A stretch of 64,000 nucleotides of DNA from positions 255,051 through 319,050 of the forward strand of contig NZ_KB904634.1 in NCBI RefSeq assembly GCF_000380165.1, given 5' to 3'. This document shows, one piece after another, positions 48,785 to 64,000 of this stretch; the first letter of the stretch is position 1; the number at the start of each line of letters is the position of its first letter. The notes below the pieces were generated by a model, which had not been told where the DNA came from, did not search any database, and was given only the letters and a program-made list of their open reading frames with translations. Both the position numbers and the translations under genes were made by a program. The DNA comes from Wenjunlia vitaminophila DSM 41686 (GTDB lineage Bacteria; Actinomycetota; Actinomycetes; Streptomycetales; Streptomycetaceae).

Positions 48785-49645
48785 TCAGCGGTAGCCGGCC
48801 AGACCGTCCGCCAGTTCTCCTTCGTCGCCGTCACGAAGGGCCTGGAGGGCTTGTTGCAGGGCGAAGGTGCCGCGGATCACGGCCACGCGGGTGGTGAGTC
48901 CGTTGTTTGACCGACCGCGCGGGGCGAGCACCCGCTCCAACAGGTCGCGGCCGTAGCTGGCCCCGATGGCCGCGAGGTCCTCGGCCGGGTCGCCAAGGGT
49001 GACGTCGTCCCAGTCGAGCACCCCGGCGAGGTGGGGCAGTCCCTGCTTCCACTCCCACAGCACGTTCTCGGCACCGAGGTCACCGTGCACCACCGCTCGA
49101 GTGAGGTGGGGAAGGCCGCCGAGTGCCGCGAGTTCCCGCTCGGCCCGCAGGCGCCCCCCGTCGGACATGAGCGGGAACAACTCGGCGCGCGTGCTCTGCG
49201 CGAACCGGCGCCACCGATCCCGTGGTGCCCGGGGCAGAACCGCGCGTACCCTCCCGTCGGTGCCGGCACGGGCCAGGCCTGCCAGCAGCGTGGCGAACTG
49301 CGCCGCCACCGTGCCGGCCACCTGGGCATCGTCGACCGCCTCGGCCTCCAGTGGTTCCCCGGGGATGCGGCTCAGTACCAGGAACGGCACGTCGGTGCCA
49401 TGGCCTCCGCCCTGGAGCAGCAGCTCAGGCGTGCGGAAACCGAGGTCGAGCCCGGCGAGCGCACGTAGTGCGACCGCCCGTTCAGGCAGGCGGGCCGCCG
49501 CCGCCCGGGTGCGGGGCAGGCACACGACGCGGTCTGGGCCCATGACCACGGTGTGGAACTGCCCCTGACGTACGGCGAGGTCGTCCGGTCTGCTGTCAGG
49601 CAGCAGGCGGCCCAGCAGAGCGCGGTGTGTTTCCCGGGCGTTCAT
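48785..49645 (-). CDS. Aminoglycoside phosphotransferase-like kinase
   Basis: 286 residues of the APH/choline kinase fold. The catalytic loop VVHGDLGAENVL (HGDxxxxN) and the following metal-binding VLDWDDVTLGDPAEDLA (Asp of DFG type) are intact, as is the PFLVLSRIPGEPLE hinge. Such genes are frequent in actinomycetes and mostly act on unknown small molecules; antibiotic resistance is not implied. ATG 49645 is preferred to the upstream open frame, which reads as a low-complexity Ala/Arg shadow. Confidence 0.8.
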   Translation of the reverse strand: MNARETHRALLGRLLPDSRPDDLAVRQGQFHTVVMGPDRVVCLPRTRAAAARLPERAVALRALAGLDLGFRTPELLLQGGGHGTDVPFLVLSRIPGEPLEAEAVDDAQVAGTVAAQFATLLAGLARAGTDGRVRAVLPRAPRDRWRRFAQSTRAELFPLMSDGGRLRAERELAALGGLPHLTRAVVHGDLGAENVLWEWKQGLPHLAGVLDWDDVTLGDPAEDLAAIGASYGRDLLERVLAPRGRSNNGLTTRVAVIRGTFALQQALQALRDGDEGELADGLAGYR

Positions 49646-49780
49646 GAGGACGGCCTCTGGTTCCTTCCACGGTGCGGAGGCGGTGCGTGACTGCGCTGTC
49701 AGGCCGCGCCGGCGAGCAGGCGTCCGTACCCGCACCGGCTCGGCCACCACACCCCACACGGGGGAGGACGCGTCTCCCAT

Positions 49781-51280
49781 TCAACCGCCCCGACCGCCGA
49801 CCCGGCGAACCTGTTCGGTCACCGCACGAGGTGTGCTCTCCGGCCGCGTGGCCGCGGGACGCGCGGTGACCGCCGGGAGGAACGCGGCGCGGTGGGCGGA
49901 GCGGTAGGCCGCGGCCAGCTCAGCCGGTGGGGACACCCGGTGCCCGGGGAGCAGCACGGCGGCGGGGTCCAGGCCGAGGGCCGCGCCGGCCCAGGCGGCG
50001 GCGCCCAGGCACGCCGCGTCAGGAACCGCGCAGACCCGGGTGGGCCACGGTGCGAGCGCCGCCTTGATCTCGACCCAGGTGCGCTGCCGCACCGAGCCAC
50101 CGAGCAGGGTCACCCCGCGGGTGCCGTTCCCGGTCAGCTCCCCCTGCACCTCGGCCATCCAGTGGGCCTGGTGGGCCGCGCCCTCGAGCAGGGCCCTGGC
50201 GAGGTGGGGCAGCCCGTGTCCGACGTCGAGACCGTGCACCGTCAGCCGCCGGGCCGGGTCCGGGTCGGGGGCGGACCTGCCGGACAGGTAGGGCTGGACG
50301 GTGAGCCCGGTGGGGCCCGCGCCGGCCCGTTCGACGAGTTCGGCGAACCGGCGGTACCGCTGCTCGGCTGGCGCCCCGGCCAGACCGAGCACCTGGTCGC
50401 AGAACCACTCCACCAGCGCCCCCGAACTGGACATGCCAGCGAGCACGCACCAGTGCGTCCCGTCCACGTGCCGGCCGTAGGACATCCCCTGGCGCCCGGC
50501 GGCCGGTGCGTCGGGCGCCGTCTCCCCCACGGTGACCACGGCTTCCGCGGTGCCCATCGAGTCGGCGACCTCCCCGGCGCCGCGCACCCCGGCGGCCCAC
50601 GCGCCCACCAGGTGGTCGTGCCCGGCGACGACCACCGGCACCCCGGTGCGGCGGCAACGGCCGACCGGTTCGCCCGGCCCGCGCACCGCGGGCATCCGGT
50701 CGGCGTCCAGGCCGGCGAGGCCCAGCAGGTCCCGGTGCCAGCGCCCGGCGTGGACGTCCCAGGCCATGGACCGCTGGGCGAACGTCGCGTCGGTGCCCAC
50801 CTGCCCGGTCAGCGCCTGCGCCACCAGGTCGGCCGCGCCCGCCCAGGTGCGCATCCGGTCCAGTGCCGCCGGGTGTTCCTCGCGCATCCACAGCCATTTG
50901 GCGAGCGGCACCTTGGGGCTGGGCAGGACGCCCGTCGCCGCGTGCAGGTCTCCGGCGCCGAGGTCGCGGCGCAGTCGTTCCGCGTGCGCCCTGGGCCGGG
51001 GGTCGGACCAGGACGAGGCGGGGAGCAGCGGTTCCCCGGCGGCGTCCAGCGGGGCGCCGGTCTCCGCCATTCCGGTGATCCCCACCGCGTCTGGCTGGCG
51101 CCCCACGGCCGTGACGCACTCGGCGAGCGCGTCCAGGGCCGCGGCGCACAGCGCCCCGACGTCGTGGGTGGGCCCGTCCGCCGGGGTGCGGCATTGCGCG
51201 TGCGCGAGCACGGTGCCCCCAGGAGTGGCGAGCACCGCCTTGCAGTGGGTGCTGCCGACGTCGAGGCCCGCCAGGATCAC
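49781..51280 (-). CDS. FGGY-family carbohydrate kinase
   Basis: 499 residues, two actin-like lobes. ILAGLDVGSTHCKAVLATPG (phosphate 1), GITGMAETGAPLD (substrate strand), VVVAGHDHLVGAWAAGV and GVTLLGGSVRQRTWVEIKAA (adenosine motif) follow the FGGY order, and QPYLSGRSAPDPDPARRLTV is the inter-lobe segment. The GTG start overlaps the stop of the 699-residue gene as GTGA. It phosphorylates a pentose, hexulose or polyol; similarity to xylulokinase-like members is general only. It is the last gene of the GH38 operon and would trap the released sugar. Confidence 0.85.
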   Translation of the reverse strand: MILAGLDVGSTHCKAVLATPGGTVLAHAQCRTPADGPTHDVGALCAAALDALAECVTAVGRQPDAVGITGMAETGAPLDAAGEPLLPASSWSDPRPRAHAERLRRDLGAGDLHAATGVLPSPKVPLAKWLWMREEHPAALDRMRTWAGAADLVAQALTGQVGTDATFAQRSMAWDVHAGRWHRDLLGLAGLDADRMPAVRGPGEPVGRCRRTGVPVVVAGHDHLVGAWAAGVRGAGEVADSMGTAEAVVTVGETAPDAPAAGRQGMSYGRHVDGTHWCVLAGMSSSGALVEWFCDQVLGLAGAPAEQRYRRFAELVERAGAGPTGLTVQPYLSGRSAPDPDPARRLTVHGLDVGHGLPHLARALLEGAAHQAHWMAEVQGELTGNGTRGVTLLGGSVRQRTWVEIKAALAPWPTRVCAVPDAACLGAAAWAGAALGLDPAAVLLPGHRVSPPAELAAAYRSAHRAAFLPAVTARPAATRPESTPRAVTEQVRRVGGRGG

Positions 51281-53376
51281 GCCGGCCCCCACAGGTCCGG
51301 CAGGTCCAGGGCGGCCTCGCAGGCGTACAGCAGCAGACCGGCGGACCACGCGTGGGAGAGGGTGAGCAACATCCCCTTGGCCTGGAAGCAGGCGGTCTGG
51401 TAGTAGCGTTCGCTGACCATGCCCCGGTAGGCGTCGAAGTCGCCGTCCTCGCGGGCGACGAACTGCCGGAAGCAGTCGAGGTTCTCCCGGGTGGAGCGCA
51501 GGTAGTAGTCGTCCCCGGTGCGGCGGGCGAGGCGGGCCATCTCCGGCAGGCAGACCAGGCCGTAGGCGTGCAGGTGCTGGTTGGACGGCGACGCCTGGTC
51601 CCCGCCGCGGGTGCGGAAGCCGTAGCGGCCCAGCATGGTGCGCGGGGAGAACGCCACGTCGTAGGTGTAGCGGAAGGTCAACATCCAGTCGGCGCTGCGG
51701 CGGGCGAGATCCAGCCACAGCTCCGGGTCGGCCGCGGCCCCCGCGGTGCCGTGGGTCACCCCCGGCGCGGTCGGGTCCGTGGGGTCGTCAGCCTCGAGCA
51801 GTGCCGTGTACGCCATGACAGCGATGTACCCGTCCTCGGAGGTTGGTGCGAGGTCCACGTCCTCGGGCGCGCCGCACAGGAACTCGGCGTGCACGTCGGG
51901 GGCGTAGCCGCGTCCGGCGCGCCGGGCGGCGTGCAACAGCGTGGGGTCGCCGAACTCCCGGGCCGCTTCCACCAGGGCGGGGACCCAGGTGAGCCCGGCG
52001 GCGCCGGCCCTGGAGAGCACCTGTCCCGTCCGGCAGTGGTAGGCCGAGCCGAGGTTGCCCGCGGTGTCCTGGGCGGTGAGGGCCACCGCCAGGTTGCTCC
52101 GGACCGCGTGCTCCCACGTGGGGTGGTCGGTGCCGTGCCGCCGCTCCTCGACCAGGGCGCGCAGCAGGAACAGGGTGGCCTCGGCCAGCGTGCGGGCGTG
52201 CAGCCGGTGCGGATCGGGGGTCCAGCCCACGGTCCACCCGCGGGACGCCGTCCACTGGCCCCAGAAGGTGCCCGCCGGGGTGAGGTTCTCGGCTATGTGG
52301 TCCAGGACCCCGGTGGCCGCCGCACGGTAGTCGGCACGGCCGGTGCGGCGGGCGTGCCGCAGCAACGCGTGGGCGTGGGGGGTCCCGCTGACCCATCCCA
52401 CGTGCATGGCCTGCCGGTCGCCGCGCTCCCCCAGTGCCTCCCGGTCGAACGCCGCGGTCTCCAGCAGCACCGGCGGGTCGGGCCGGTAGTGCCAGCGGTA
52501 CAGCCCCCAGGCGGTGAGGTCCGCCGCCTCGGGAACGTCCACCCAGGCGGCGGGGGCACGGTCCGCGGCGAGGCGCCGGTGCACCGCGCGCAGCACCGCC
52601 GCGTAGGCGTGCGGGTCCGCGTCGAGCAGGTGCACCCGGAAACTGACGGTCCGCCGCTCCTGCGGCTGCCACCGGTGCAACGGGACCTCCGCGGGCAGGG
52701 GGTCGGCCGAGCCGTGGTAGACGACGGGCTCCTCACGGTACGGGAAGTGCAGGCGCAGCGCCGGACGGGACTCCGGCCCCAGGGACAGCCCCACCCCGGA
52801 GAGCCCCAGCGGGCTGTCCTCCCCGGTCTCCAGCGCTGCGCCGCCGTGCCGGTCCCGGGCGAAGACGGCCGGTGTGGCACAGCGGTCGGCGCGGAACGCC
52901 CAGGTGTCGGCGACCATCCCCGCGGGGTCCGAGGTGCCGGGGGCGAACCGGGGGAACCGGCGCTGGCAGTCGGGGAGGCGGTTCTGGCCGTAGAACAGGC
53001 CGGGCACCAACCAGCCGGGGTCAGCGGTGGGGCCGAGGAGCAGTTCCACCCGGAGTCCGGCGCGGGCCGCGGTCGCCGCGGTGCGGGTGACGGTGAGGGT
53101 GACGGTGTGGCTGACGGGCCCCGCACCGGGAGCGGGAGGGGTGGCGCCGGGGTCGTCGGCCGGTCCGTCGGTCGGTGTCGGCGGGGACACCACGGCCTCG
53201 GCCGAGAATCCGGCGGCGGCACCGGTGAGCACCTGTCCGCCCCCGGGGGTCGCTGTCCGCCCGCGCACCGCGACGGGCGCGGCGACGCCCCGCTCGTCAG
53301 TGATCGCGACCAGGTAGGGCAGCTCCACCAGCCCGCCGCGGTGCTCGGTGCGCAGCAGCATCGGGTGTCCCGTCAC
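51277..53376 (-). CDS. Unrecognised 699-residue protein, probable alpha/alpha-barrel glycan enzyme
   Basis: I do not recognise the family. The N-terminal 250 residues are beta-rich (LVELPYLVAITDERGVAAPV, VTLTVTRTAATAARAGLRVE) like a sugar-enzyme beta-sandwich. Residues about 290-690 have repeating helical pairs with aromatic residues (GLYRWHYRPDPPVLLETAAF, GTFWGQWTASRGWTVGWTPD, SERYYQTACFQAKGMLLTLS), typical of an (alpha/alpha)6 barrel of glycoside hydrolases or lyases. Acidic residues such as FWGQW and LGSAYHCRTG surroundings could hold catalytic groups. No signal peptide. It overlaps both neighbours by four bases, so it is made with GH38 and the FGGY kinase. A role in intracellular processing of the same glycan is inferred. 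Confidence 0.6.
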   Translation of the reverse strand: MTGHPMLLRTEHRGGLVELPYLVAITDERGVAAPVAVRGRTATPGGGQVLTGAAAGFSAEAVVSPPTPTDGPADDPGATPPAPGAGPVSHTVTLTVTRTAATAARAGLRVELLLGPTADPGWLVPGLFYGQNRLPDCQRRFPRFAPGTSDPAGMVADTWAFRADRCATPAVFARDRHGGAALETGEDSPLGLSGVGLSLGPESRPALRLHFPYREEPVVYHGSADPLPAEVPLHRWQPQERRTVSFRVHLLDADPHAYAAVLRAVHRRLAADRAPAAWVDVPEAADLTAWGLYRWHYRPDPPVLLETAAFDREALGERGDRQAMHVGWVSGTPHAHALLRHARRTGRADYRAAATGVLDHIAENLTPAGTFWGQWTASRGWTVGWTPDPHRLHARTLAEATLFLLRALVEERRHGTDHPTWEHAVRSNLAVALTAQDTAGNLGSAYHCRTGQVLSRAGAAGLTWVPALVEAAREFGDPTLLHAARRAGRGYAPDVHAEFLCGAPEDVDLAPTSEDGYIAVMAYTALLEADDPTDPTAPGVTHGTAGAAADPELWLDLARRSADWMLTFRYTYDVAFSPRTMLGRYGFRTRGGDQASPSNQHLHAYGLVCLPEMARLARRTGDDYYLRSTRENLDCFRQFVAREDGDFDAYRGMVSERYYQTACFQAKGMLLTLSHAWSAGLLLYACEAALDLPDLWGPA

Positions 53377-55922
53377 CGCGCCGCGGCGGGGAGGTCGTCG
53401 GTGGTGACCTGTGTCCTGGGGAACTCCAACAGGTCCGTCTCCACCACCGGCTCGCCGGGGTCGACCGGTATCCGGAAGGTCCTGATCTGCGCCGGGCCGA
53501 ACTCGGCCCGGATCTCCCGGTCGAGCAGCGGCAGCCGGATGGTGGCCGTCCCGCCCCGTCCCGCGGTCTCCACCGCCCGCACGATCAGCGCGCCGGTGCC
53601 GTCCTCGTCGCCCTTGACCACGCTGACCACCACCGACTCCCCGTCCACCGCCACGAAACCGCGTCGGCCCGGCAGCGGCCCCGGGTGGTAGCTCTCGAGC
53701 AGGGCGAACGGCGGCTGGTTGAGCTGCGCCGCGAGCCGCACCGTGCCCGCGTCCCGCCAGTCACCCGCGTGCGGCAGCAGTCGGTAGCGGAAGGTCTGCC
53801 GCCCCTGGTCCAGGTACTCGTAGACGCCGTCCTCGTCGAGCTCCCGGGGTTCGTGCCAGGCGTAGGCGGGGCTGCGCAGCACGGTCATGCCGATCTCGCC
53901 GCGGACCGCGTCGTGCCCGTACTTGCCGTCGTTGAGCACCGAAAGGCCGGCCCGACGGCCGTCCGGCAGGGCGCCGGAGACGTCCACCCACGCCTGGGCG
54001 GACTCCTCGGTTCCGTCGGCGGGTCGGGTGATCTGCCCGTAGGGGATCTCGAAGCTGGCGGCGTCTGTGTCGAGGGCGGTGGGGAAGCGGAACTTCAGCA
54101 GCCGCAGCTTCTCGTGCCAGTCGACCACGGCGCGCACCTCGAGGTGCCGGGCCCCCGCGGACAGCACCAGTTCCTCGGCGAGGGTGGACCGCTGGTACTC
54201 GCTGTCCACCCGCAGGACCGCGCGCACCGGGCCGCTCTCCACCAGGCGCACCCTGGTGCAGTGGAACGCGCCGATCTCCTTGTCGTAGGCGGAGACCCGG
54301 TGGCCCCAGGTGTCCGAGGGGTCGTCCACCACCACGGCGTGCGGGCGGGGTTCGGCGGGGAGCAGTTCGTTCCCGTGGTCCTTGTCGTACAGCCGCCGCA
54401 GCCAGCCGGTGGCGGGGTCCACCTCGACCAGCAGGTGCTCGTTCTCCAGGGTGGTCGCGGTGGCGCGGACCGGCCCGGGCGCCGGGTCGGCGCTGACGAG
54501 GCGGTCCGCGGTGCGGGTGCCGGGCAGCACCCGGTAGACGCGGTATCCCAGTGGCGGCACCTCGGCGCGGAAGGCGAGCCGCCCGCGGCTGCTGCTCATG
54601 GTGGCGTGGGACCGGGTGGGCTGGACCGGCACCTCGGTGCCCTCGTCGTCGAGCAGCCTTGCGCGGACGCCCCCCGGGTACCCGGTGAACTCGAACTCGA
54701 CGTCCTCCACCAGGGTCCACGGGTGCGGGTTGAACACCACCAGCGGGTACAGGTCGGGTTCGGCCGGGATGTCGATGAGACGACTGACCGACTGGACGGC
54801 GCGGTTGAACACGGTGGCGGCCACGGAGCTGGCGTGGCCGTACTGGTCGCGGCTGTCCTCGTAGGCCGGGGCGATCGAGGTGCCGGCGAGGACGTCGTGG
54901 AACTGGTTGAACAGCACCAGTTTCCACGCCTCGGTCAGCTCGGCGAGCGGGTACGGCACCCCGGCCACCACCTGGGCGACCGAGGCCCACTTCTCGGCGC
55001 GCTGCAACAGGTTCTCGGCGCGGCGGTTCCACTGCTTGACGCCGGAGTGGGCCGAGTAGCAGCCCACGGCGTGGTGTTGGAGTTCACCGGCGTGCACCGG
55101 CGTGCCCGGCCGGTTCCGCACCGCGTCGAAGAACGCCTCGGGGTGGCTGAGCCGCAGCCTCGGGAGCCCACCGAGGTCGTCGAGCCGGCGGATGCTGTCC
55201 AGGTTGGCCCTGGTGGGTCCGCCGCCGTGGTTCCCCACCCCGTACATGATCAGCAGTTCGGGCTCGTCCGGAGGTACCAGCGCCAACGACTTGTCGATGT
55301 GGTGACCGATGTCCTGACCGGGTGAGCCGTACTCGTTGGGTATGCGGTACGCCAGCACCCGGGAGCCGTCCGCGGACTCCCACCAGAAGTACTGGTTGGG
55401 CAGGGCCAGCTCGTGCGGCCCCGGGCGCAGGAAGAGGTAGGAGTCGATGCCGCTGAGACGCAGGAGCTGCGGCAGCGCCGCGTTGTGCCCGAACGGGTCC
55501 ACGTTGCAGCCCACGGTGGCGATGGCGCCGAACCTGTCCAGCAGGTAACGCTGCCCGTACAGCGCCTGCCGGACGAACGCCTCGCCGCCGGGCGTGTTGC
55601 AGTCCGGCTCGACCCACCAGCCGCCGACGATCTTCCAGCGCCCCTCGGCGACCCGCGCGCGGATCGCGGTGAACAACTCGGGGTCGTTCTCCTCCACCCA
55701 CGCCAGGTACAGCACCGAGTCACAGGTGAAGACGAAGTCGGGGTACTCCTCCATGCGGTCGATCGCGGACCGGAAGGTCGCCCGGACCTCCTGGTAGCCC
55801 TCGGGCCACTGCCACAGCCACACCGGGTCGATGTGGGCGTTGCCCACCATGTGCGCGGTGCGCCGGTGGGGGCGCACGGGTGTCCCCGGTGCGGCGGTCG
55901 GGGGGAGCGCGGGATCGTTCAC
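53373..55922 (-). CDS. GH38 alpha-mannosidase
   Basis: 849 residues, full GH38 length. The zinc ligands are His30 and Asp32 in VGNAHIDPVWLWQW; the nucleophile Asp142 lies in GCNVDPFGHNAAL; another zinc His lies in LFNQFHDVLAGTSI. After the alpha/beta barrel come the three-helix bundle (about 290-390) and the beta-sandwich C-terminal domains. It removes alpha-mannosyl residues with retention. GTG 55922 is chosen as the first start after the SIS stop at 55972; its ribosome site is weak and the start uncertain. No signal peptide, so the substrate is imported. It overlaps the next gene by four bases. Confidence 0.92.
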   Translation of the reverse strand: MNDPALPPTAAPGTPVRPHRRTAHMVGNAHIDPVWLWQWPEGYQEVRATFRSAIDRMEEYPDFVFTCDSVLYLAWVEENDPELFTAIRARVAEGRWKIVGGWWVEPDCNTPGGEAFVRQALYGQRYLLDRFGAIATVGCNVDPFGHNAALPQLLRLSGIDSYLFLRPGPHELALPNQYFWWESADGSRVLAYRIPNEYGSPGQDIGHHIDKSLALVPPDEPELLIMYGVGNHGGGPTRANLDSIRRLDDLGGLPRLRLSHPEAFFDAVRNRPGTPVHAGELQHHAVGCYSAHSGVKQWNRRAENLLQRAEKWASVAQVVAGVPYPLAELTEAWKLVLFNQFHDVLAGTSIAPAYEDSRDQYGHASSVAATVFNRAVQSVSRLIDIPAEPDLYPLVVFNPHPWTLVEDVEFEFTGYPGGVRARLLDDEGTEVPVQPTRSHATMSSSRGRLAFRAEVPPLGYRVYRVLPGTRTADRLVSADPAPGPVRATATTLENEHLLVEVDPATGWLRRLYDKDHGNELLPAEPRPHAVVVDDPSDTWGHRVSAYDKEIGAFHCTRVRLVESGPVRAVLRVDSEYQRSTLAEELVLSAGARHLEVRAVVDWHEKLRLLKFRFPTALDTDAASFEIPYGQITRPADGTEESAQAWVDVSGALPDGRRAGLSVLNDGKYGHDAVRGEIGMTVLRSPAYAWHEPRELDEDGVYEYLDQGRQTFRYRLLPHAGDWRDAGTVRLAAQLNQPPFALLESYHPGPLPGRRGFVAVDGESVVVSVVKGDEDGTGALIVRAVETAGRGGTATIRLPLLDREIRAEFGPAQIRTFRIPVDPGEPVVETDLLEFPRTQVTTDDLPAAAR

Positions 55923-55971
55923 GGTGGGGTCCAGGGGCTGGGGGACGGGTGGCGTCCGGGGCGTGGGTGGG

Positions 55972-56688
55972 TCAGGAGGAGGTGGTGCGGGCACGGCTGG
56001 GTCCTGCGTCCGGGGCGGGGTGGGCCCGGGTGACGGCGGGCGGCCCTTCGCAGCGGCCCTCGTGGGGGGTCCGGCCGGGGGGCGGTCCCTGCGCTGGGGC
56101 GGCGTCGGCCGGTGCCTGCTCGGCGGCCCAGGCGTCCACCTGCTCGCTGAGCAGGTGCAGCAGGAGCAGGTGCATCTCCTGGACCCGGGCGGTGGTGCGG
56201 GACGGGACCACCAGCGCCAGGTCGGCGTGGGCCGCGGCGGGGCCGCCGTCCCCGTCACCACCGCCGAACAGCACGGTGAAGGCACCCTGTTCGCGGGCGG
56301 CGCGCAGTCCGCGCACCACGTTCTCGGAACGGCCGGAGGTGGTGAACGCGATGACCATGTCGCCCGGCCCGGCGAACGCCCTCACCTGGCGGGAGAACAG
56401 GTCCTGGAAGGCGTAGTCGTTGCCGATGCAGGTGGCCACGGAGGGGTCCACGGTCAGCGCCAGGGCCGGGAGCGGGCGGCGCTCCCGCAGGTAGCGGCCG
56501 ACCAGTTCGGCGGCGAGGTGCTGGGCGTCGGCCGCGCTGCCACCGTTGCCGAACGTGTAGAGCCGGCCCCCCGACTCGTACACCCCGATCAGGCGCCGGA
56601 CGGCCAGGTCCAGTGCGGGCAGCAGGGGCTCGACCCGACGGGCCAGGTCCAGGTGGTCCGCGAGCTGGGCCCGTGGGTCCTCAGCCAT
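55972..56688 (-). CDS. SIS-domain sugar isomerase, GmhA-like
   Basis: 238 residues. The SIS core (about 30-185) has LYTFGNGGSAADAQHLAAEL (phosphosugar loop), PALALTVDPSVATCIGNDYA and MVIAFTTSGRSENVVRGLRA, typical of D-sedoheptulose-7-phosphate isomerase-like proteins. The last 45 residues are a disordered Pro/Gly/Arg tail. In this operon it would isomerise a phosphorylated sugar made by the kinases rather than build heptose LPS, which actinomycetes lack. It overlaps the ROK kinase stop by eight bases. Confidence 0.85.
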   Translation of the reverse strand: MAEDPRAQLADHLDLARRVEPLLPALDLAVRRLIGVYESGGRLYTFGNGGSAADAQHLAAELVGRYLRERRPLPALALTVDPSVATCIGNDYAFQDLFSRQVRAFAGPGDMVIAFTTSGRSENVVRGLRAAREQGAFTVLFGGGDGDGGPAAAHADLALVVPSRTTARVQEMHLLLLHLLSEQVDAWAAEQAPADAAPAQGPPPGRTPHEGRCEGPPAVTRAHPAPDAGPSRARTTSS

Positions 56689-57769
56689 GCGTGGGGTTCC
56701 CTTCGGACGGTTCGGGGGTGGGGGCCGCCGGGGGTACCGGGGCCGCGGTGGGGTGCGGCCCGACCGGGGCGCGTTCGAAGGCGACGGCCGCCGCGCCCAC
56801 CACCCCGACGTGGTCACCGGTGTGCGCGGCGACGACGCTGGCCGCGGCGGCGGCCGGGCCCATCGCCTGCTCGCGCACCGTGCGTCGCACCGGGGCGAGC
56901 AGCCGCTCGCCGGCCCGCGTGACTCCCCCGCCGAGCACGACGAGTTCGGGTTCGAAGAGGTTCACCAGGGAGGTGACGCCGCAGGCCAACGCGTCGGTGG
57001 TGGCCGCCCACACCTCGCCGGCGACCCCGTCGCCCGCTGCGGCCTCGCGCGCCACGTCCCTGGCGGTGAGCGGGGAGTACCGGGCGAGGGCGGTGGCGCG
57101 GCCGGCGGCCAGCGCCTCGGCCACGGCCTCCTGGGCCCGTTCCGCGATGGAGGTGCCGGAGGCGTACGCCTCCAGGCAACCGCGCCGGCCGCAGCTCCGG
57201 CAGGGCCGGCCGTCTCGTTCGACGGTGACGTGCCCCAGCTCACCACCGTTGCCCGCGGCGCCCCGGTAGACGCGGCCGTCGATGACCACCCCGCCCCCCA
57301 CCCCGGTGGAGATGGTGAGGTAGATCATGTGTCGGGTGCCCCGCCCCGCACCGAAGCGGTGTTCGCCCGCGGCGGCCGCGGTGGCGTCGTTCTCCAGCAC
57401 CGTGGGCAGGCCGTACTCCCGCTCGGCGAGCCTGACCACCGGCACCTCCCACCAGCCCGGCAGGTGGGGCGGACCCAGCAGCACTCCGGCGGAGCAGTCC
57501 AACGGTCCCCCACAACCGATGCCCACCGCACCGATCCGTTCCGGGGCGACACCGGACTCCTCGATCGCCCTGCGGCCGAGGGCGAAGAGACGGTCGAGCA
57601 CGGCGCTCACCCCCTGCCGCACCAGGGTGGGGGTCACCAGGAACGAGTGCACCTGGCCGTTCCGGCCGACGACCCCGGCCGCCAGCTTGGTGCCGCCGAT
57701 GTCGAGCCCCAGGACGGCGTGGCCGCTGCGGTCCGCTCGTTCCGCCGGGACGCGGGTGTTCTCCGCCAC
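56681..57769 (-). CDS. ROK-family sugar kinase
   Basis: 362 residues. VLGLDIGGTKLAAGVV (phosphate loop), VGIGCGGPLDCSAGV, LENDATAAAAGEHRFG (catalytic Asp), MIYLTISTGVGGGVVIDG and the zinc motif CRSCGRRGCLEAYASG show an active ROK kinase, probably glucokinase- or mannokinase-like. There is no DNA-binding domain. GTG 57769 follows GGAAGG. It is the first gene of the operon, 139 bp behind the palindromic operator at 57908-57925, and would phosphorylate the monosaccharide released by GH38 or GH1. Confidence 0.9.
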   Translation of the reverse strand: MAENTRVPAERADRSGHAVLGLDIGGTKLAAGVVGRNGQVHSFLVTPTLVRQGVSAVLDRLFALGRRAIEESGVAPERIGAVGIGCGGPLDCSAGVLLGPPHLPGWWEVPVVRLAEREYGLPTVLENDATAAAAGEHRFGAGRGTRHMIYLTISTGVGGGVVIDGRVYRGAAGNGGELGHVTVERDGRPCRSCGRRGCLEAYASGTSIAERAQEAVAEALAAGRATALARYSPLTARDVAREAAAGDGVAGEVWAATTDALACGVTSLVNLFEPELVVLGGGVTRAGERLLAPVRRTVREQAMGPAAAAASVVAAHTGDHVGVVGAAAVAFERAPVGPHPTAAPVPPAAPTPEPSEGNPTHG

Positions 57770-57907
57770 TGGACCTTCCGGTTCGGTCGTCGCCTCGGGC
57801 CCGCCGCAGGGCGCCACGGCCCCTCACGTGCGGCGGGTTCCGCCACACCGCCCGGCGCCGGCCCCTCGGTGGCCGCCCCCGGACGGGTGTCGTCAACGAT
57901 ATGACAT

Positions 57908-57925
57908 CGTTCCCATGTGGGAACG
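57908..57925. promoter_or_regulatory. Sugar-locus operator, copy 1
   Basis: CGTTCCCATGTGGGAACG is an 18-bp palindrome with one central mismatch (T/G). The surrounding bases CATCGTTCCCA / GTAACCAC are the same at the second site (63878-63895). On the minus strand TTACGT and, 19 bases on, CATATC could be -35 and -10, placing the operator between them. A LacI-type repressor is the likely reader. Confidence 0.75.
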
Positions 57926-58223
57926 TAACCACATACCGGAGGCGCGTCAACACCCCACGGCGATCCCGTCGGTTCCCGGCCGCGAGGGAGCTCCGACGCG
58001 ACGGCCCCGGGAGTCCGCCCGGCCCGACGCGGGAGGACACGAAGCGGTGGCCGCCCACCGGGCGACGGAGTGTCGCGGACCACGCCTCGACCACGACTGC
58101 CACACTGGCCAACGCCATGCGTGGGATGTTTCGGGTATTCCATCCCAAACACGCTTCAACCGCCGTGACGTGCCCCAACCCACATGACCTGGTCCAACGA
58201 AAGAGACAAAGAGGGAGAGCAGG
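57926..58223. other. Intergenic region with inverted repeat before the small secreted protein
   Basis: 298 bases without a gene. TGGGATG (58122-58128) and CATCCCA (58141-58147) form a perfect 7-bp inverted repeat with a 12-base spacer, 77 bp before the start of the small secreted protein gene. It may be a regulatory site or part of its leader. Confidence 0.4.
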
Positions 58224-58577
58224 ATGAAGGCTCTTGCCCACGTGGCCGCGGCGACCGGGGCAACCCTGGTCGTGGGCCTGTTGGCTGCCGCGCCCGCTTC
58301 GGCCGCCCCGACCCGCCCGGCGGCGCGGTGCCCGGCGAATCTCCACGCCTCCACCACGGGCGGCAAGGCGGAGTGGACGGTGCGCTGCTCCAGCGGGCGG
58401 GTCCAGGTCCGCGGGTGGGTGCGGGACACCATGCCCGACGGCAGGTGCGCCCGCATCAAGGCGTTCCTCGGGCACTCCGGCCGACGTGACGCCAAGGCCT
58501 GTTCGTACAACACGACGACGAGGTTCAACTGGTCCGGCCCCGGCACCGAGGCACGGGTGTACCTGTACGTCGCCTAA
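58224..58577 (+). CDS. Small secreted protein with four cysteines
   Basis: 117 residues, unrecognised. Residues 1-28 are a Sec signal peptide (MKALAHVAAATG, hydrophobic core to LLAAAPASA). The mature 89 residues contain Cys36, Cys55, Cys75 and Cys93, enough for two disulfides, and a beta-rich pattern (KAEWTVRCSSGRVQVRGWVR, TRFNWSGPGTEARVYLYVA). ATG 58224 follows GGGAGAGCAGG. It is divergent from the GH38 operon and opposite in direction to the whole sugar locus. It resembles small exported actinomycete proteins of unknown role. Confidence 0.75.
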   Translation: MKALAHVAAATGATLVVGLLAAAPASAAPTRPAARCPANLHASTTGGKAEWTVRCSSGRVQVRGWVRDTMPDGRCARIKAFLGHSGRRDAKACSYNTTTRFNWSGPGTEARVYLYVA

Positions 58578-58585
58578 CGTGCCCG

Positions 58586-59149
58586 TTGCCGTTCGGCACC
58601 GCGGTGCCGGGCCAAGCGCCGGCAGCGGCCCCGCGGGCGGAGGCGACGGTTCGTCGCCCGGCGCTGGCCGGGCGACGGGTCCGGGGCGTCGGCCGGCTAC
58701 CCCCGCACCCAGCGGGCAGGGCGGCGGTCACCGCCGACACCGCCGACCGCAACCTCCAGCAGTCCACGCACCTCACCGTGGACGCCGCCACCCGGGCCGC
58801 CCTCGACTCCGCCGAGAAGGACAACCAGCGGGTCTCCGTGGCCGTCGTCGACCGCAACGGGAACACCCTCGTCACCCTGCGCGGCAACGGGGCGGGCCCG
58901 CAGTCGTACCCGTCCGCGGAGGAGAAGGCATTCACCGCTGTGTCCTGGAACGCACCCACCTCGGAACTGGTCAAGCGCCTGGAGCAGAACCCGACCTCGA
59001 AGGACATCCCCGGCACCCTGTTCCTGGCGGGCGGCGTGCCGGTTTCCGCCAAGGGTGCCCCGGTCGCCGGTATCGGCGTGGCCGGTGCGCCCAGCGGCGA
59101 CCTGGACGAGAAGTACGCCGAGGCGGGTGTCGCCGCCCTGGTCGGATAG
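58586..59149 (+). CDS. HbpS/GlcG-like heme-binding family protein, atypical N-terminus
   Basis: 187 residues from a TTG at 58586; family similarity begins only near residue 50. NLQQSTHLTVDAATRAALDS, QRVSVAVVDRNGNTLVTLRG, YPSAEEKAFTAVSWNAPTSE, IPGTLFLAGGVPVSAKGAPV and GIGVAGAPSGDLDEKYAEAG are textbook HbpS/GlcG segments. HbpS is normally exported, but the first 45 residues here are Arg/Pro/Ala-rich with no hydrophobic core and no better start is seen. It may be a 5'-damaged gene, translated from an internal start or coupled to the gene ending 8 bp upstream. Confidence 0.75.
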   Translation: MPFGTAVPGQAPAAAPRAEATVRRPALAGRRVRGVGRLPPHPAGRAAVTADTADRNLQQSTHLTVDAATRAALDSAEKDNQRVSVAVVDRNGNTLVTLRGNGAGPQSYPSAEEKAFTAVSWNAPTSELVKRLEQNPTSKDIPGTLFLAGGVPVSAKGAPVAGIGVAGAPSGDLDEKYAEAGVAALVG

Positions 59150-59170
59150 GGCGTCCAGCCGCCGGGCACG

Positions 59171-59206
59171 GTGACGCGCCGCCAGCCCCGACCGGGACGG
59201 CGTCAC
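59171..59206. terminator. Hairpin between convergent genes
   Basis: GTGACGC (59171-59177) pairs with GCGTCAC (59200-59206), followed by GCCTTTC on the plus strand. It lies 22 bp after the HbpS-like stop and 63 bp before the end of the FAD-oxidoreductase gene. Confidence 0.5.
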
Positions 59207-59268
59207 GCCTTTCGAAGCACGCCGGGTCCCGTGGGACCGGGGGTCGAGGCGCGTCCCGGCCGCAGGGG

Positions 59269-62200
59269 TCACCCGATGCGGTTCGGCACCGGCCGCATCC
59301 CCACCGGGAAGGGCAGGTCGGCGGCGTGCGGGTCCTGCTCCCAGGGCAGCGGTCGGGCTGTGGCGGGGCCCCCGTCGGCCAGCCGGCGGAGCCAGGCCGC
59401 GGCGTCCTTCCCCAGGTCCACCCCGTACACCGCGACGAGCTGGCGGTGTGCCTGCTCGGCGAGCAGGGCACGGCAGTCGTCCAGGTACTCGACGAGCACC
59501 TCGGTCCCGTGGGCCGAGCCGCACCGAGCCAGGGCCCGCCCCAGCGCCAGCTCCAGCAGGGCCGCACGTTCCTGGAAGTCGTCCGGCTCGATGCCGTGGT
59601 GCCGCCACTGTGCGTGCAGCCCCGGCCGCTCGCGCAGCCGCAGCAGCAGGGGCACCGCCGCCGGGTCACCCAGTCGTTCGGCCCCCGCGCACACCGCGTC
59701 CACCCAGTAGAACGAACCGGCCAGCGGGTCGCGCAGCCCGCGGGGGGAGACGTCCACCAGTTCCGCCACCCGCTCCCAGACCGCGACGGCCCGTGGGTCG
59801 CGGGCCAGCGCCAGGGTGTACAGCAGGTACGCGTCCTGTGGCATCGCCGACTGGTCCGGGGGTAGCTGCGCCTCCCTGATCCGTGCCTCACGCGCGGGGA
59901 GCGCCGGCCCGGACACCGCCAGGTGCAGCCGCTCGAGCAGCACCTCCACGCCCGCGGACGCCCCTCGGCAGACCAGCGCCTGGGCCAGCACCAGGCGACC
60001 GGGGCCGGTCGCCTGGTCGAGCGCGGTCAGCAGCGCGTCGGTCACCCGGGGCCCCGGATCGAGGACCAGGTGCACCAACGGGATCGCGCCCCGGTACGTC
60101 TCCCGGCGGCCCATGTCGGAGTACGCGTGCAGGGGCACCCGACGCACCAGCTCCGCGACCAGCTCGGGCACCGGTGGGGGCACGGGTGCGGGCCGCCGCA
60201 GGGCCCGTGCCGGGAGCAACCCGCGTTCCACCAGGACGCGTTGCAACCGCGGCACGTCCAGGGCCCGTGGCGCCACCCCCTCCAGGGCGCAGCGGGCCGC
60301 GGCGGCGCCGGTCACCGCCCCCAGGTTCTCCAGGTCGGCCTGCATCCGCAGCGCAGCCAGGGCGTCGTGGGTCGCTGAGAGGGCCTTGCCGGTGACCAGG
60401 AGGCCGTCGAGTCCGCGCGGGAGCAGCGCGCGGTAGGGCAGTTCGACCTCGAGGTTGGGTGGGATCAGCCCGAGCTGCGGCCACAGCGCCTCGCCCTTGC
60501 CCTTGACGTCGTGGTTGGAGAAGTGCAGGTTCACCACGTCCGGCCAGTGGCGTTGGGTGAGCTGGTCGGTGAGGGTCACCGTGGCCTCGCCGACCAGGTG
60601 CCGGCTCTCCCGGGCCGCCGGCTGGATGCCGTGGTCGTGCGCCGGCCCGCCCCGGCGGCGGGCGGCGAGGACCGCACGGGTGGAGTCCTCCACGTTGCTG
60701 ACGTCGGCGATGCCGCCGAAGGTGTTGCGGGTCACTCCGGGGTGCTCGAACCGGGCCAACGACGACCACATCACGGTGTGCGTCCCCACCGCGCCGTACT
60801 CGGTGGGAGCCCCGCACCAGGCGGCGAGGTCCGCGTCGCCGGTGGCGTCCACGACCACCTCGGCCACCACCGCCACCGGTCCTTCGGGGCCGGCGAGCAC
60901 GGCGCCGCGCACCCGGTCGCCGGTGCGCAACGCGGCCACGGCGAGCGTCCCCGGCAACACCTCGACGCCCGCCTCGGCCGCGGCCCGGCCCAGCGCCAGG
61001 GCCTTGAGCTCGATGTGCCAGTTCCCCACCCCGCCGGGAAGCCCGTGTTCCCGGTGCAGTCCCCGGGTCCTGCGCTGGAGCTCCGCGGCCTGCCCCTCGC
61101 GACGTCCGAACCAGTAGCTGTGCACCCCGCCGTAGGTGCCGGTCCCGCCGAGCCCGGGGCCGGCGTCCACCACCAGGGTCGTGGCGCCCTCGCGGGCCGC
61201 GCTGATCGCGGCCGGGGCCCCGCTGCTGCCGCCCCCGACGACGAGCACGTCCACCCGGCGCACCACGGGTACCGGCACGGGTGCGACGCGCTCCCGGGGG
61301 TAGTGCCGGCCGCGCTGGGGCGCGCACTGCTCGGCGACCTCGAGCACGGGGCGCGGTGGGGGCACCGGGGCCGGCGACGTGGGCGTGGCAGGGTGCGCGG
61401 GCCGACCGGCGGTGAGCGTCACCGCGAGCTCCCTGCCCCGCCGCTCCCCGAACGCCACCGCGGCCAGCGGTCCGGCGGCCAGCGGGTGCAGGTCCCGGGT
61501 CGGCACCGGGCCGTGGCGCGCGACCGGCGCGCGGTCCGGTGTCGCGGCGGGCGGCGGGGGTACGTTCCGGGCGGCGGCGTCCGGCACCAGTGGCCACATC
61601 CCGGGGCCGGTCGCGCCGCCGTGCCGCACCGCTGGGCCGTGCGGGCGGTGTGCCACGGCTCCCAGCCGGGCACGGTGGAACGCCGGGTGCTCGCGGAAGA
61701 GACGGCCCGCCGCCCCCAGGGCCGCGACGCGGTCCCGGACCGCGAACTCGCCCAGCAGGTGTCCCGGGCCGCGGTGCCCCCGGTGCCAGCGGACCCCGTC
61801 CACGTGTGGTGTCCCCCGCGTGGTGTCCACCTCCGTGAACTCCACCGTCCAGGTCAACGGGCCGGCCGTCGCCGTGCGGGCGTCCAGCACGGCGGCGCAG
61901 CGCACCAGTTGTCGTCCGGACTTGCTGCCGACGACCAGGCCGCGCGGCACCCCGTGGGGGGCGTGCCCGGCCAGCGGGCGCACCCCGTAGAGCAGCTCGA
62001 CGCCGCTGGCCAGCAGCGCGTCCTCCAGAGCGGTCTTGACCTCGGCCGGCACCAGCGGGACCTCGGCAGCGGCGGGAACGCCCGGCGGCACCAGTGCCCG
62101 CAGCGGGCCGCCGTCGTGCCCGGGGGAGACGGTCAGCCAGGGTCGGTTGGTGTCGGTGAGGTCCGTGCCGAGCCCGTAGCCGGCTTCGAGCAGGACCACC

Positions 62201-62400
62201 CGCAGTCCCGCGCCGGCCAGCTCGACCGCCGCGGCGACGGCGGCGACGGGGCCGGCGACCACCGCGACGTCCACGTCCTTCAGCACGGACAGCTCCCGAC
62301 CGGGCAGGGTCACGGTGGGCGACGCGCGCTCCGGGGCACCAGCGGTGGGCGGGGCACCAGCGGTGGGCGGGGCACCGGCGGACCGCCGGGGGCCGGTCAC
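59269..62400 (-). CDS. Large FAD-dependent oxidoreductase with two Rossmann regions and helical C-terminus
   Basis: 1043 residues. Residues 41-180 form a Rossmann-like region whose dinucleotide loop is degenerate (VVAGPVAAVAAAVELA), followed by unusual sequence to 375. Residues 382-745 are a second, intact FAD_oxidored-type domain: VDVLVVGGGSSGAPAAISAA (loop 389-394), GTGTYGGVHSYWFG, VVVDATGDADLAAWCGAP and GLLVTGKALSATHDALAALR. Residues about 750-1043 are helical and repeat-like (VTDALLTALDQATGPGRLVL, VPLLLRLRERPGLHAQW), similar to HEAT. The GTG start overlaps the GH1 stop as GTGA. No signal peptide. It probably oxidises a sugar or glycoside in the same pathway; the reaction is unknown. Residues 9-20 are a coding 18-bp repeat. 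Confidence 0.75.
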   Translation of the reverse strand: MTGPRRSAGAPPTAGAPPTAGAPERASPTVTLPGRELSVLKDVDVAVVAGPVAAVAAAVELAGAGLRVVLLEAGYGLGTDLTDTNRPWLTVSPGHDGGPLRALVPPGVPAAAEVPLVPAEVKTALEDALLASGVELLYGVRPLAGHAPHGVPRGLVVGSKSGRQLVRCAAVLDARTATAGPLTWTVEFTEVDTTRGTPHVDGVRWHRGHRGPGHLLGEFAVRDRVAALGAAGRLFREHPAFHRARLGAVAHRPHGPAVRHGGATGPGMWPLVPDAAARNVPPPPAATPDRAPVARHGPVPTRDLHPLAAGPLAAVAFGERRGRELAVTLTAGRPAHPATPTSPAPVPPPRPVLEVAEQCAPQRGRHYPRERVAPVPVPVVRRVDVLVVGGGSSGAPAAISAAREGATTLVVDAGPGLGGTGTYGGVHSYWFGRREGQAAELQRRTRGLHREHGLPGGVGNWHIELKALALGRAAAEAGVEVLPGTLAVAALRTGDRVRGAVLAGPEGPVAVVAEVVVDATGDADLAAWCGAPTEYGAVGTHTVMWSSLARFEHPGVTRNTFGGIADVSNVEDSTRAVLAARRRGGPAHDHGIQPAARESRHLVGEATVTLTDQLTQRHWPDVVNLHFSNHDVKGKGEALWPQLGLIPPNLEVELPYRALLPRGLDGLLVTGKALSATHDALAALRMQADLENLGAVTGAAAARCALEGVAPRALDVPRLQRVLVERGLLPARALRRPAPVPPPVPELVAELVRRVPLHAYSDMGRRETYRGAIPLVHLVLDPGPRVTDALLTALDQATGPGRLVLAQALVCRGASAGVEVLLERLHLAVSGPALPAREARIREAQLPPDQSAMPQDAYLLYTLALARDPRAVAVWERVAELVDVSPRGLRDPLAGSFYWVDAVCAGAERLGDPAAVPLLLRLRERPGLHAQWRHHGIEPDDFQERAALLELALGRALARCGSAHGTEVLVEYLDDCRALLAEQAHRQLVAVYGVDLGKDAAAWLRRLADGGPATARPLPWEQDPHAADLPFPVGMRPVPNRIG

Positions 62401-63791
62401 GGCAGCTCCGGGACGGCGTTGGCCCTGGCCGCCGCGGCGTACCAGTGCCCGCTGTCCTTGACGGTGCGACGCTGGGTGGCGTGGTCCACGTGCACCAGGC
62501 CCATGCGGGGGCGGTAGCCCATGGCCCACTCGAAGTTGTCCAGCAGGGACCAGTGGAAGTAGCCGCGCACCGGGGCGCCCCGTTCGATGGCGCGGTGCAC
62601 CGCCACCAGGTGGCGGTGGAGGAAGTCGGTGCGGCGTCGGTCGTGCACCGCGCCGTCCGGGCCTGGTTCGTCGTCGTAGGCCGCGCCGTTCTCGGTGACC
62701 AGGAGCGGCACTCCGGGGTGGTCGCGGTGCAGCCGGACCAGCAGGTCGGTGAGCGCCTCGGGGACCACTTCCCAGTTGAGGTCGGTGCGCGCCACCTCGG
62801 GCCGGCCGGGCTGTACCTTCCAGGGGAACGGGCCGTCACCGCGTCCGGCGCTGACGATCCGGCGCGTGTAGTAGTTGACACCGATGAAGTCGCTGCCCGT
62901 GCCGATCACGGCCAGGTCGCCCTCGGCGATGAAGTCGAGCTCCCCCACCGCGTCCTGCCAGTGGGCCCGCATGTCCGCGGGGTACCGGCCGGTCAGCACC
63001 GGATCGAGGAACCAGCGGTTGACGTAGCCGTCCGAGCCGTGGGCCGCCGCCAGGTCGGCCGGTCCCCAGGTGTGCGGTTCGTGGGGGTAGAGGCTGAACG
63101 CCACTCCCGCGCGTCCCCGGCCGGCGAGCTCGCGCACCGCGAGGCCGTGGCCGAGCAGCAGGTGGTGCATCGCCCGCACCGAGCCGGCCACGTCCCGCTC
63201 CCCCGGTGCGTGCAGGCCCAGTTGGTGGCCGAGGACGCCGACGATCCACGGCTCGTTGACGGTGATCCAGTCACGGACCCGGTCGCCGAAGGCGTCGAAG
63301 CACACCGCGGCGTACTCCGCGAAGCGTTCCGCGGTCTCCCTGGCCCGCCAGCCGCCGCGGTCCTGGAGGGCCTGGGGCAGGTCCCAGTGGTAGAGGGTGA
63401 GCAGGGGGGTGATGCCGTGCTCCAGCAGCCGGTCGACGAGCCGGTGGTAGTGGTCGAGGCCCCTGCGGTTGACCGGTCCCGTGCCCTCGGGGAGCAGCCG
63501 CGGCCAGGACACCGAGCAGCGGTAGGCGTTGGTGCCGAGCGCCGCCATCAGCGCCACGTCCTGCTCGACCCGGTGGTAGTGGTCGCAGGCGGTGGCGCCG
63601 GTCTCCCCGCGTTCGACGGCTCCGGGAACCCGGCTGAAGCGGTCCCAGACGGACTCGCCGCGCCCGTCCTCCTGCTCGGCGCCCTCCACCTGGTACGCGG
63701 AGGTGGCCGTCCCCCACCAGAACCCCTCGGGGAACCGCAGGGTGCGGGGGGCGTCCTTGTCCTCGGTGCGTGTGTGGGGGTCGGCGTTCAC
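62397..63791 (-). CDS. GH1 beta-glycosidase
   Basis: 464 residues, standard GH1 length, a retaining beta-glucosidase-type enzyme. FPEGFWWGTATSAYQVEG at the N-terminus, acid/base Glu180 in WITVNEPW, nucleophile Glu367 in LLVTENGAAYDDE and the aglycone-site SLLDNFEWAMGYRPRMGL are all present. GTG 63791 is chosen from the family N-terminus; the ribosome site is weak and the frame runs on upstream across the operator. It is the first gene of a two-gene unit with the FAD oxidoreductase, 87 bp behind the second copy of the palindromic operator. No signal peptide, so it hydrolyses imported oligosaccharides or glycosides. Confidence 0.93.
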   Translation of the reverse strand: MNADPHTRTEDKDAPRTLRFPEGFWWGTATSAYQVEGAEQEDGRGESVWDRFSRVPGAVERGETGATACDHYHRVEQDVALMAALGTNAYRCSVSWPRLLPEGTGPVNRRGLDHYHRLVDRLLEHGITPLLTLYHWDLPQALQDRGGWRARETAERFAEYAAVCFDAFGDRVRDWITVNEPWIVGVLGHQLGLHAPGERDVAGSVRAMHHLLLGHGLAVRELAGRGRAGVAFSLYPHEPHTWGPADLAAAHGSDGYVNRWFLDPVLTGRYPADMRAHWQDAVGELDFIAEGDLAVIGTGSDFIGVNYYTRRIVSAGRGDGPFPWKVQPGRPEVARTDLNWEVVPEALTDLLVRLHRDHPGVPLLVTENGAAYDDEPGPDGAVHDRRRTDFLHRHLVAVHRAIERGAPVRGYFHWSLLDNFEWAMGYRPRMGLVHVDHATQRRTVKDSGHWYAAAARANAVPELP

Positions 63792-63877
63792 GTGGGGACG
63801 GTTCTTCCTGTGGCGTTGGCCGGTTGGGGGCGGATCAGGGGCTATGGCCGGGCACGGTCGTCCGACCATTGTGGCAT

Positions 63878-63895
63878 CGTTCCCACGTGGGAACG
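63878..63895. promoter_or_regulatory. Sugar-locus operator, copy 2
   Basis: CGTTCCCACGTGGGAACG is a perfect 18-bp palindrome that, with flanks CAT and TAACCAC, repeats the site at 57908-57925 except at one central base. It lies upstream of the GH1 gene. On the minus strand TTACGT and CACAAT, 19 bases apart, could be the promoter hexamers. Confidence 0.8.
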
Positions 63896-64000
63896 TAACC
63901 ACGCTCGGGGCCCTCGTCAACGGGACGCGCGTCACGCGGCCCCGCGGGTGCGCGCCCGTCCCGGCAGCCGCACCGGACCTCAGGGGGTGCGGATCGGCTC

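What the first reader, a model, noticed from the sequence alone, without database searches (positions are those of the whole stretch)
57908..63895. Shared palindromic operator ties two sugar operons together
CGTTCCCAyGTGGGAACG with identical flanks (CAT before, TAACCAC after) lies in front of both the ROK-SIS-GH38-unknown-FGGY unit and the GH1-FAD unit. Possible promoter hexamers flank the palindrome in both places, so a single repressor would block both. Its gene and the importer probably lie just right of the window.
Basis: partly seen in the sequence, partly recalled or inferred. Interest (0 to 1): 0.6.

Follow-up and report, generated by a model that had tools for sequence, protein, structure and literature searches.

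The report
LacI sugar regulon with double operators
Two sugar-gene clusters in this bacterium carry the same switch, which looks like a side-by-side pair of binding sites for a LacI-type repressor encoded just beyond the window; it is an ordinary kind of sugar control, unusual only in the fixed spacing of the pair.

Summary
In detail: CGTTCCCAYGTGGGAACG with the stated flanks is at 57908 and 63878. The 6.43-Mb genome holds exactly three GTTCCCA-N(0-12)-TGGGAAC places, within 16 kb: these two, and one before a GH31-like/metallo-hydrolase/LacI operon 9.5 kb right of the window. So a LacI gene does lie to the right, as predicted. The importer does not: none was found up to the contig end, and the genome shows only weak partial matches to the binding protein that relatives keep in this regulon. 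The palindrome is better read as the junction of two abutting LacI-type operators (TGRNWWCGWWNYCA, centres 16 bp apart). The upstream one contains the -10 box (TACGTT), 17 bp from a TTGAC -35. In loci of other genomes picked only by one regulon protein the units recur: 12 of 12 class loci carry them, 11 of 12 as pairs before the importer genes, and isolated single units precede MBL-LacI and ROK genes. A fourth, weaker pair here precedes a GH84 gene. Likely function: a local repressor regulon for a mannose-containing oligosaccharide; binding, inducer and substrate are untested. Known kind; the 16-bp spacing is off the published peaks (13, 22, 32 bp).

The parts
57918..57931 (-). Operator O1 of the ROK promoter (gene strand TGGTTACGTTCCCA); contains the -10-like TACGTT (57922-57927)
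   Evidence: aligned with relatives
57902..57915 (-). Operator O2 of the ROK promoter (gene strand TGGGAACGATGTCA), 2 bp from O1
57945..57950 (-). -35-like TTGACG, 17 bp from TACGTT
   Evidence: 0.002 of shuffles have TTGAC at 16-19 bp
63888..63901 (-). Operator O1 of the GH1 promoter (gene strand TGGTTACGTTCCCA) with -10-like TACGTT (63892-63897)
63872..63885 (-). Operator O2 of the GH1 promoter (gene strand TGGGAACGATGCCA)
63915..63920 (-). -35-like TTGACG, 17 bp from TACGTT
   Evidence: 0.0005 of shuffles
56681..57769 (-). ROK-family sugar kinase; only the ROK domain matched
   Evidence: PF00480 E 1.1e-63; start codon chosen by reading
55972..56688 (-). SIS-domain sugar isomerase, GmhA-like but below every NCBIfam cut-off listed
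53373..55994 (-). GH38 alpha-mannosidase family protein (start codon uncertain)
   Evidence: PF01074 E 5.1e-64
51277..53376 (-). Protein of 699 aa with no Pfam or NCBIfam match at E 0.001 and no PDB sequence match by profile at E 0.1; present in the cluster of relatives
   Evidence: 74% in L114, 60% in G004, 54% in L158, 52% in L161
49781..51280 (-). FGGY carbohydrate kinase
   Evidence: PF00370/PF02782
62397..63791 (-). GH1 beta-glucosidase family
   Evidence: TIGR03356 576.7 bits, cut-off 478.5
59269..62400 (-). FAD-dependent oxidoreductase, start overlaps the GH1 stop; also behind GH1 in G004
   Evidence: PF12831 E 9.9e-60

Best explanation
It is a local LacI-family repressor regulon. The repressor (C1:323405-324568, 4.4 kb right of the window) binds as dimers to two abutting 14-bp operators, each centred on CG, at each of three promoters: ROK-SIS-GH38-unknown-FGGY, GH1-FAD, and GH31-like-MBL-LacI (which would make it autoregulated). 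O1 covers the -10 box and O2 the expected start of transcription, so bound repressor shuts RNA polymerase out; a sugar, probably from a mannose-containing oligosaccharide, would release it. Shown: the sites, their rarity in the genome, the promoter geometry, the LacI gene behind the third site, and recurrence of units plus regulator in other genomes. Inferred: binding, repression, operon extents, start site, inducer, substrate.
For: Three exact copies in the genome, all in one 16-kb stretch and each before a minus-strand gene row, one of which encodes LacI. S. flaveolus (LacI 73%) has three pairs, before GHx-MBL-LacI, GH1-SBP-permease-permease-GH4 and ROK-SIS-GH38..unknown-FGGY. G004, chosen only because it has a GHx homologue, has two pairs, before MBL-GHx-LacI and SBP-permeases-ROK-SIS-GH38..unknown-GH1-FAD-FGGY. 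In 12 class loci chosen the same way, 12 of 12 carry the 14-mer and 11 of 12 a pair (10 at 16 bp, 1 at 18 bp). LacI lies in the cluster in 11 of these 12; in the twelfth (L151) the contig begins 1.7 kb beyond GHx. 17 of 19 strict pairs have TTGAC 17-18 bp from TACGTT in O1. Isolated single units precede MBL (8), ROK (5) and GHx (1) in relatives, which a single inner palindrome does not explain. Block shuffles gave 1 unit and 0 pairs in 2.01 Mb, against 57 units observed in 0.40 Mb (19 pairs + 19 singles). The recognition-helix pattern SxSTASRAL was found in 12 of 16 loci scanned. CG-centred even palindromes are the rule for LacI proteins (1173 of 1303; passages of PMC4052901).
Against: No binding or expression data. 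The inner palindrome is at least as symmetric as the units: 105 of 133 positions paired, against 94 (O1) and 103 (O2); in own sites 1-3 it is 7 of 7. The unit pattern was derived from own and S. flaveolus sites before it was tested on the others. 10 of the 12 class loci are from one family (f19) and are not independent. The own genome has 26 matches to the LacI protein; a paralogue could share the site. L158 has units but no pair, and L069 one unit only. The importer that relatives keep in the regulon was not found here.
Confidence: 0.86

Rival explanations
1. A single repressor dimer recognises the inner palindrome GTTCCCA-NN-TGGGAAC; the outer arms are conserved only because they hold the promoter.
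For: The inner palindrome is perfect (7 of 7) in own sites 1-3 and S. flaveolus site 2, and paired in 105 of 133 positions over 19 pairs, more than either unit.
Against: The gap is 2 bp in 18 pairs and 3 bp in one, 4 bp in L152. Outer TG and CA are kept in 9 of 9 pairs tabulated, though the two G004 pairs among them were found with a pattern that requires this. Inner arms differ (TTCTCA/TGGCAA) in 9 class loci while the units stay intact. Isolated units exist. LacI operators have CG in the centre (PMC4052901 passages), whereas here CG is at the outer edge of the inner palindrome.
Confidence: 0.1
2. The regulator is another protein (another LacI paralogue or the ROK-type repressor at 42678-43859) and the linked LacI controls something else.
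For: 26 matches to the LacI protein in this genome; a ROK protein with a helix-turn-helix is in the window.
Against: The linked LacI lies in the cluster in own, S. flaveolus, Thermoleophilia, G004 and 11 of 12 class loci, and behind the third own copy.
Confidence: 0.08
3. Chance or repeat-derived similarity with no regulatory role.
For: Degenerate matches exist elsewhere in the genome.
Against: 0 pairs in 9.6 Mb and 2.0 Mb of shuffles; recurrence at the corresponding promoters in other genomes with diverged flanks.
Confidence: 0.01

Closest known systems
CebR2 of Streptomyces scabiei (PMC9953190, passages read)
   Same: 14-nt CG-centred consensus TGGGAACGTTCCCA (deduced in silico there), two sites before a sugar importer gene
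   Different: CebR2 is tied to a cello-oligosaccharide cluster; here the genes are GH38/ROK/SIS/FGGY/GH1/GH31-like. This genome has a separate LacI (33-34% identical) beside a CebR-type TGGGAGCGCTCCCA site on contig 25. CebR2's sequence was not compared.
Tandem LacI-family operators (RafR, ScrR, GntR; PMC4052901, passages read)
   Same: Two sites before one operon, thought to be bound by two dimers
   Different: Published spacings peak at 13, 22 and 32 bp; here 16 bp (17 once, 18 in L152)
Cutibacterium acnes N-glycan core loci (PMC6160142, passages read)
   Same: GH38 with sugar importer and regulator; a ROK kinase, and GH4 in the second locus
   Different: No GH5_18 or GH20 among the genes identified here; S. 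flaveolus carries a GH2 between GH38 and the 699-aa protein
Paenarthrobacter ilicis xanthan region (PMC12772297, passages read)
   Same: GH38, LacI, N-acetylglucosamine kinase, FAD-dependent oxidoreductase, ABC importer
   Different: Has PL8, GH3 and GH9, none among the regulon genes identified here

Membership tests
LacI/GalR-family regulator | N-terminal LacI HTH plus periplasmic-binding-protein-like effector domain | tested here: met
   PF00356 E 2.6e-14, PF13377 E 1.4e-30
LacI/GalR-family regulator | Even, palindromic, CG-centred operators | tested here: met
   Units match TGRNWWCGWWNYCA by construction; isolated units in relatives include the perfect TGGGATCGATCCCA
LacI/GalR-family regulator | Binds the operator and is released by a sugar effector | not testable with these tools
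   needs protein
Tandem-operator LacI regulons (RafR/ScrR type) | Spacing on one face of DNA (21-22 bp) | tested here: not met
   centres 16 bp apart in 18 of 19 strict pairs, 17 in one
CebR/CebR2 | Control of a cello-oligosaccharide importer cluster | tested here: inconclusive
   Relatives have GH1 and an importer in the regulon; own genome has a separate CebR-type site and LacI on contig 25; no reference CebR sequence compared
GH38 N-glycan or xanthan degradation loci | Signature partners GH5_18/GH20 or PL8/GH9 | tested here: inconclusive
   not among the regulon genes identified; genome not searched for them

The most novel reading that the evidence does not exclude
A LacI clade in Actinobacteria with a fixed double operator, two dimers 16 bp apart on roughly opposite faces of the DNA, one on the -10 box and one on the start site, as an all-or-none lock; isolated units at the regulator and kinase genes of relatives would give graded control in the same regulon.
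Probability: 0.3. Interest if true: 0.45.

Novelty: new member of a known kind. Interest (0 to 1): 0.33.

Why it matters
It gives a testable repressor, operator and gene list for a glycan pathway that my paper searches did not find described, including a 699-aa protein with no family match and a remote GH31-like protein. It also shows how reading the strongest palindrome by eye can mistake the junction of two operators for one. A genome that keeps the operators but apparently lacks the importer its relatives have is a natural case of a regulon that lost or replaced its uptake step.

Tried and rejected
Structure prediction of the 699-aa protein (2-sequence alignment, mean pLDDT 39.9) and of the GH31-like protein (3 sequences, 49.3) was too poor; no fold search was run. 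Profile search of the PDB: GH31 alpha-galactosidase 8j53 E 2.2e-7 over about 65 positions for the GH31-like protein, nothing at E 0.1 for the 699-aa protein. Paper searches by gene content gave 0 papers or 11 (of which I read passages of two); tandem LacI operators in Streptomyces gave 0. Six operator 14-16-mers occur in one paper of the library, the CebR2 one. The palindrome with N1-N4 was looked for in 297 family genomes: 5 have it, own included; the other four have N3 or N4 centres and were not followed. A weak half-site before LacI (CGTTATCGTTCCCG, in the DNA printed) was not counted. The two-mismatch look-alikes on contigs 23 and 25 were not annotated; no unit was found in the contig-23 stretch or in a different contig-25 stretch.

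Whether the fourth pair (C1:93396-93425, before a GH84 gene) is an equal member was left open: it lacks the TTGAC/TACGTT promoter and another LacI gene lies in that cluster.
Full report
Observation. Exact GTTCCCA-N(0-12)-TGGGAAC occurs at three places in the 6.43-Mb genome and never in the reversed control. All three lie on contig 1 within 16 kb: C1:312958 and C1:318928 (window 57908 and 63878), and C1:328530, 9.5 kb right of the window end. None appeared in 9.6 Mb of dinucleotide shuffles of the window. Degenerate versions do exist in the genome (20 forward, 13 reverse hits at up to 3 mismatches, control 5 and 5).

Genes. Behind the first site on the minus strand are ROK kinase, SIS isomerase, GH38, a 699-aa protein without a Pfam or NCBIfam match, and FGGY kinase; behind the second, GH1 and a 1043-aa FAD-oxidoreductase. 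Of the nine proteins scanned, only GH1 passes an NCBIfam cut-off (beta-glucosidase), so exact substrates are open. Behind the third site are a 630-aa protein remotely like GH31 alpha-galactosidases (no Pfam match), a protein with two metallo-beta-lactamase stretches and a LacI-family regulator at C1:323405-324568.

What the site is. Each palindrome sits inside a longer element: two 14-mers of the form TGRNWWCGWWNYCA, 2 bp apart (3 bp at the third site), with centres 16 (17) bp apart. On the gene strand the first, O1, reads TGGTTACGTTCCCA in the window and contains TACGTT; TTGACG lies 17 bp upstream of it at both window sites and TTGACC 18 bp upstream at the third. In shuffles of the upstream DNA of seven such promoters, TTGAC at 16-19 bp came up in 0.05-0.4% of trials. 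The start of transcription, inferred from the -10, would fall at the gap or the beginning of O2.

Comparison with other genomes. A scan of GTDB contigs with the LacI protein gave 30 loci, two of them with high identity: S. flaveolus (L068, 73%) and a Thermoleophilia MAG (L069, 55%). S. flaveolus has three pairs, before GHx-MBL-LacI, GH1-SBP-permease-permease-GH4, and ROK-SIS-GH38, followed by a GH2, the 699-aa protein's homologue, FGGY and a LacD-type aldolase. With up to 3 mismatches a 21-base core finds the three pairs and one other place in that 10.3-Mb genome. The Thermoleophilia locus has one unit only, with the same promoter geometry.

Two tests then used loci chosen solely by the presence of the GHx protein. 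In the family, 2 of 121 genomes have it, own and G004. G004 has the set in one cluster with two pairs: before MBL-GHx-LacI, and before SBP-permease-permease-ROK-SIS-GH38..699-aa-GH1-FAD-FGGY. In the class, 13 of 197 genomes have it, own included. In stretches from the twelve others, 12 of 12 carry the unit; 11 of 12 carry a pair before the importer genes, 10 at 16 bp and one (L152) at 18 bp; L158 has units but no pair. Ten of the twelve are from one family. Over the sources,848 bases, there are 19 strict pairs and 19 isolated units; block shuffles gave 1 unit and no pair in 2.01 Mb. By position (my reading), 8 isolated units precede MBL, 5 ROK, 1 GHx, 2 the importer genes (L069, and half of the L152 pair), 1 a second SBP-like stretch, and 2 are unassigned, one of them inside the ROK match. 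Four further isolated units turned up in the stretches: before MBL, before ROK, before a second SBP, and one between LacI and GH38. 17 of 19 pairs have TTGAC 17-18 bp from TACGTT; the exceptions are the G004 MBL pair (19 bp to ATCGTT) and the GH84 pair (none).

One operator or two. Symmetry alone does not decide, and leans the other way: over the 19 pairs the inner palindrome pairs 105 of 133 positions, O1 94 and O2 103, and in own sites 1-3 the inner palindrome is perfect. Three facts favour two operators. Units occur alone. The inner arms differ (TTCTCA against TGGCAA) in nine of the class loci while the units persist. And the gap varies from 2 to 3 bp (4 in L152). LacI operators are in general even palindromes centred on CG (1173 of 1303 regulators; passages of PMC4052901), which fits the units and not the inner palindrome.

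Regulator. LacI lies in the cluster in own, S. flaveolus, Thermoleophilia, G004 and 11 of the 12 class loci; in L151 the contig begins 1.7 kb beyond GHx. Of 16 stretches scanned for the helix pattern VAxxAGxSxSTASRAL, 12 match; L151, L153 and L154 as first fetched end before LacI, and L152 has a LacI match by tblastn but not the pattern.

The importer. Relatives carry an ABC importer in the cluster: S. flaveolus, G004 and 11 of 12 class loci by SBP and permease matches, L069 by one permease domain. The window genome does not, as far as searched: tblastn with the S. flaveolus SBP, permeases and GH4 against the window, the flank to the contig end and six other own stretches gave only 32-33% permease matches on contig 25 and a 38% GH4 match at C1:76 kb, and the SBP has weak partial hits genome-wide. 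The permeases were not searched genome-wide.

A fourth pair. C1:93396-93425 holds TGGGAACGATGCCA-GA-TGAGAACGATGCCA, about 100 bp before a GH84 gene (PF07555 E 2.6e-102), in a cluster with an RbsA-type importer by my reading, another LacI gene and the GH4 homologue. It may belong to the regulon, or to that other LacI.

Function. A repressor regulon for breakdown of an oligosaccharide with alpha-mannose is the best guess, from GH38 with two kinases, an isomerase and further glycosidases. GH38 loci for N-glycan cores (PMC6160142) and xanthan (PMC12772297) share part of the gene set, but their signature enzymes are not among the genes identified here (passages). For the operator, the closest print match found is the CebR2 consensus TGGGAACGTTCCCA of S. 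scabiei (PMC9953190 passages).

Verdict. The shared switch is real and its regulator is very probably the LacI to the right. It is a normal kind of regulon, with an off-peak but conserved tandem spacing. All four papers cited were seen as passages only; PMC4052901.

Noticed in passing
48785-49780 (-): Protein close to viomycin phosphotransferase Vph (396.9 bits, cut-off 400), directly behind FGGY; the match begins at residue 46, so the start may be 49645.
   Followed up: no
L113:7397-9425 (C1:91397-93425): GH84-type gene with a double unit in front and no TTGAC/TACGTT promoter match, next to an importer cluster and another LacI gene.
   Followed up: partly
C25:46379 (L117): CebR-type site TGGGAGCGCTCCCA about 110 bp before another LacI gene, with a GH1 (52%) and permeases (32-33%) nearby.
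   Followed up: no
L114:12248-13887: LacD/DeoC-type aldolase (PF01791) and an Asp/Glu-racemase-type protein behind FGGY in S. flaveolus; may belong to the pathway.
   Followed up: no
51277-53376 (-): 699-aa protein with no match in Pfam or NCBIfam, present at 52-74% identity in the clusters of four relatives (L114, G004, L158, L161); a candidate new glycan-active family.
   Followed up: partly
42678-43859 (-): ROK-type repressor with a MarR-like HTH next to an MFS transporter (43937-45226); no unit was found there.
   Followed up: no
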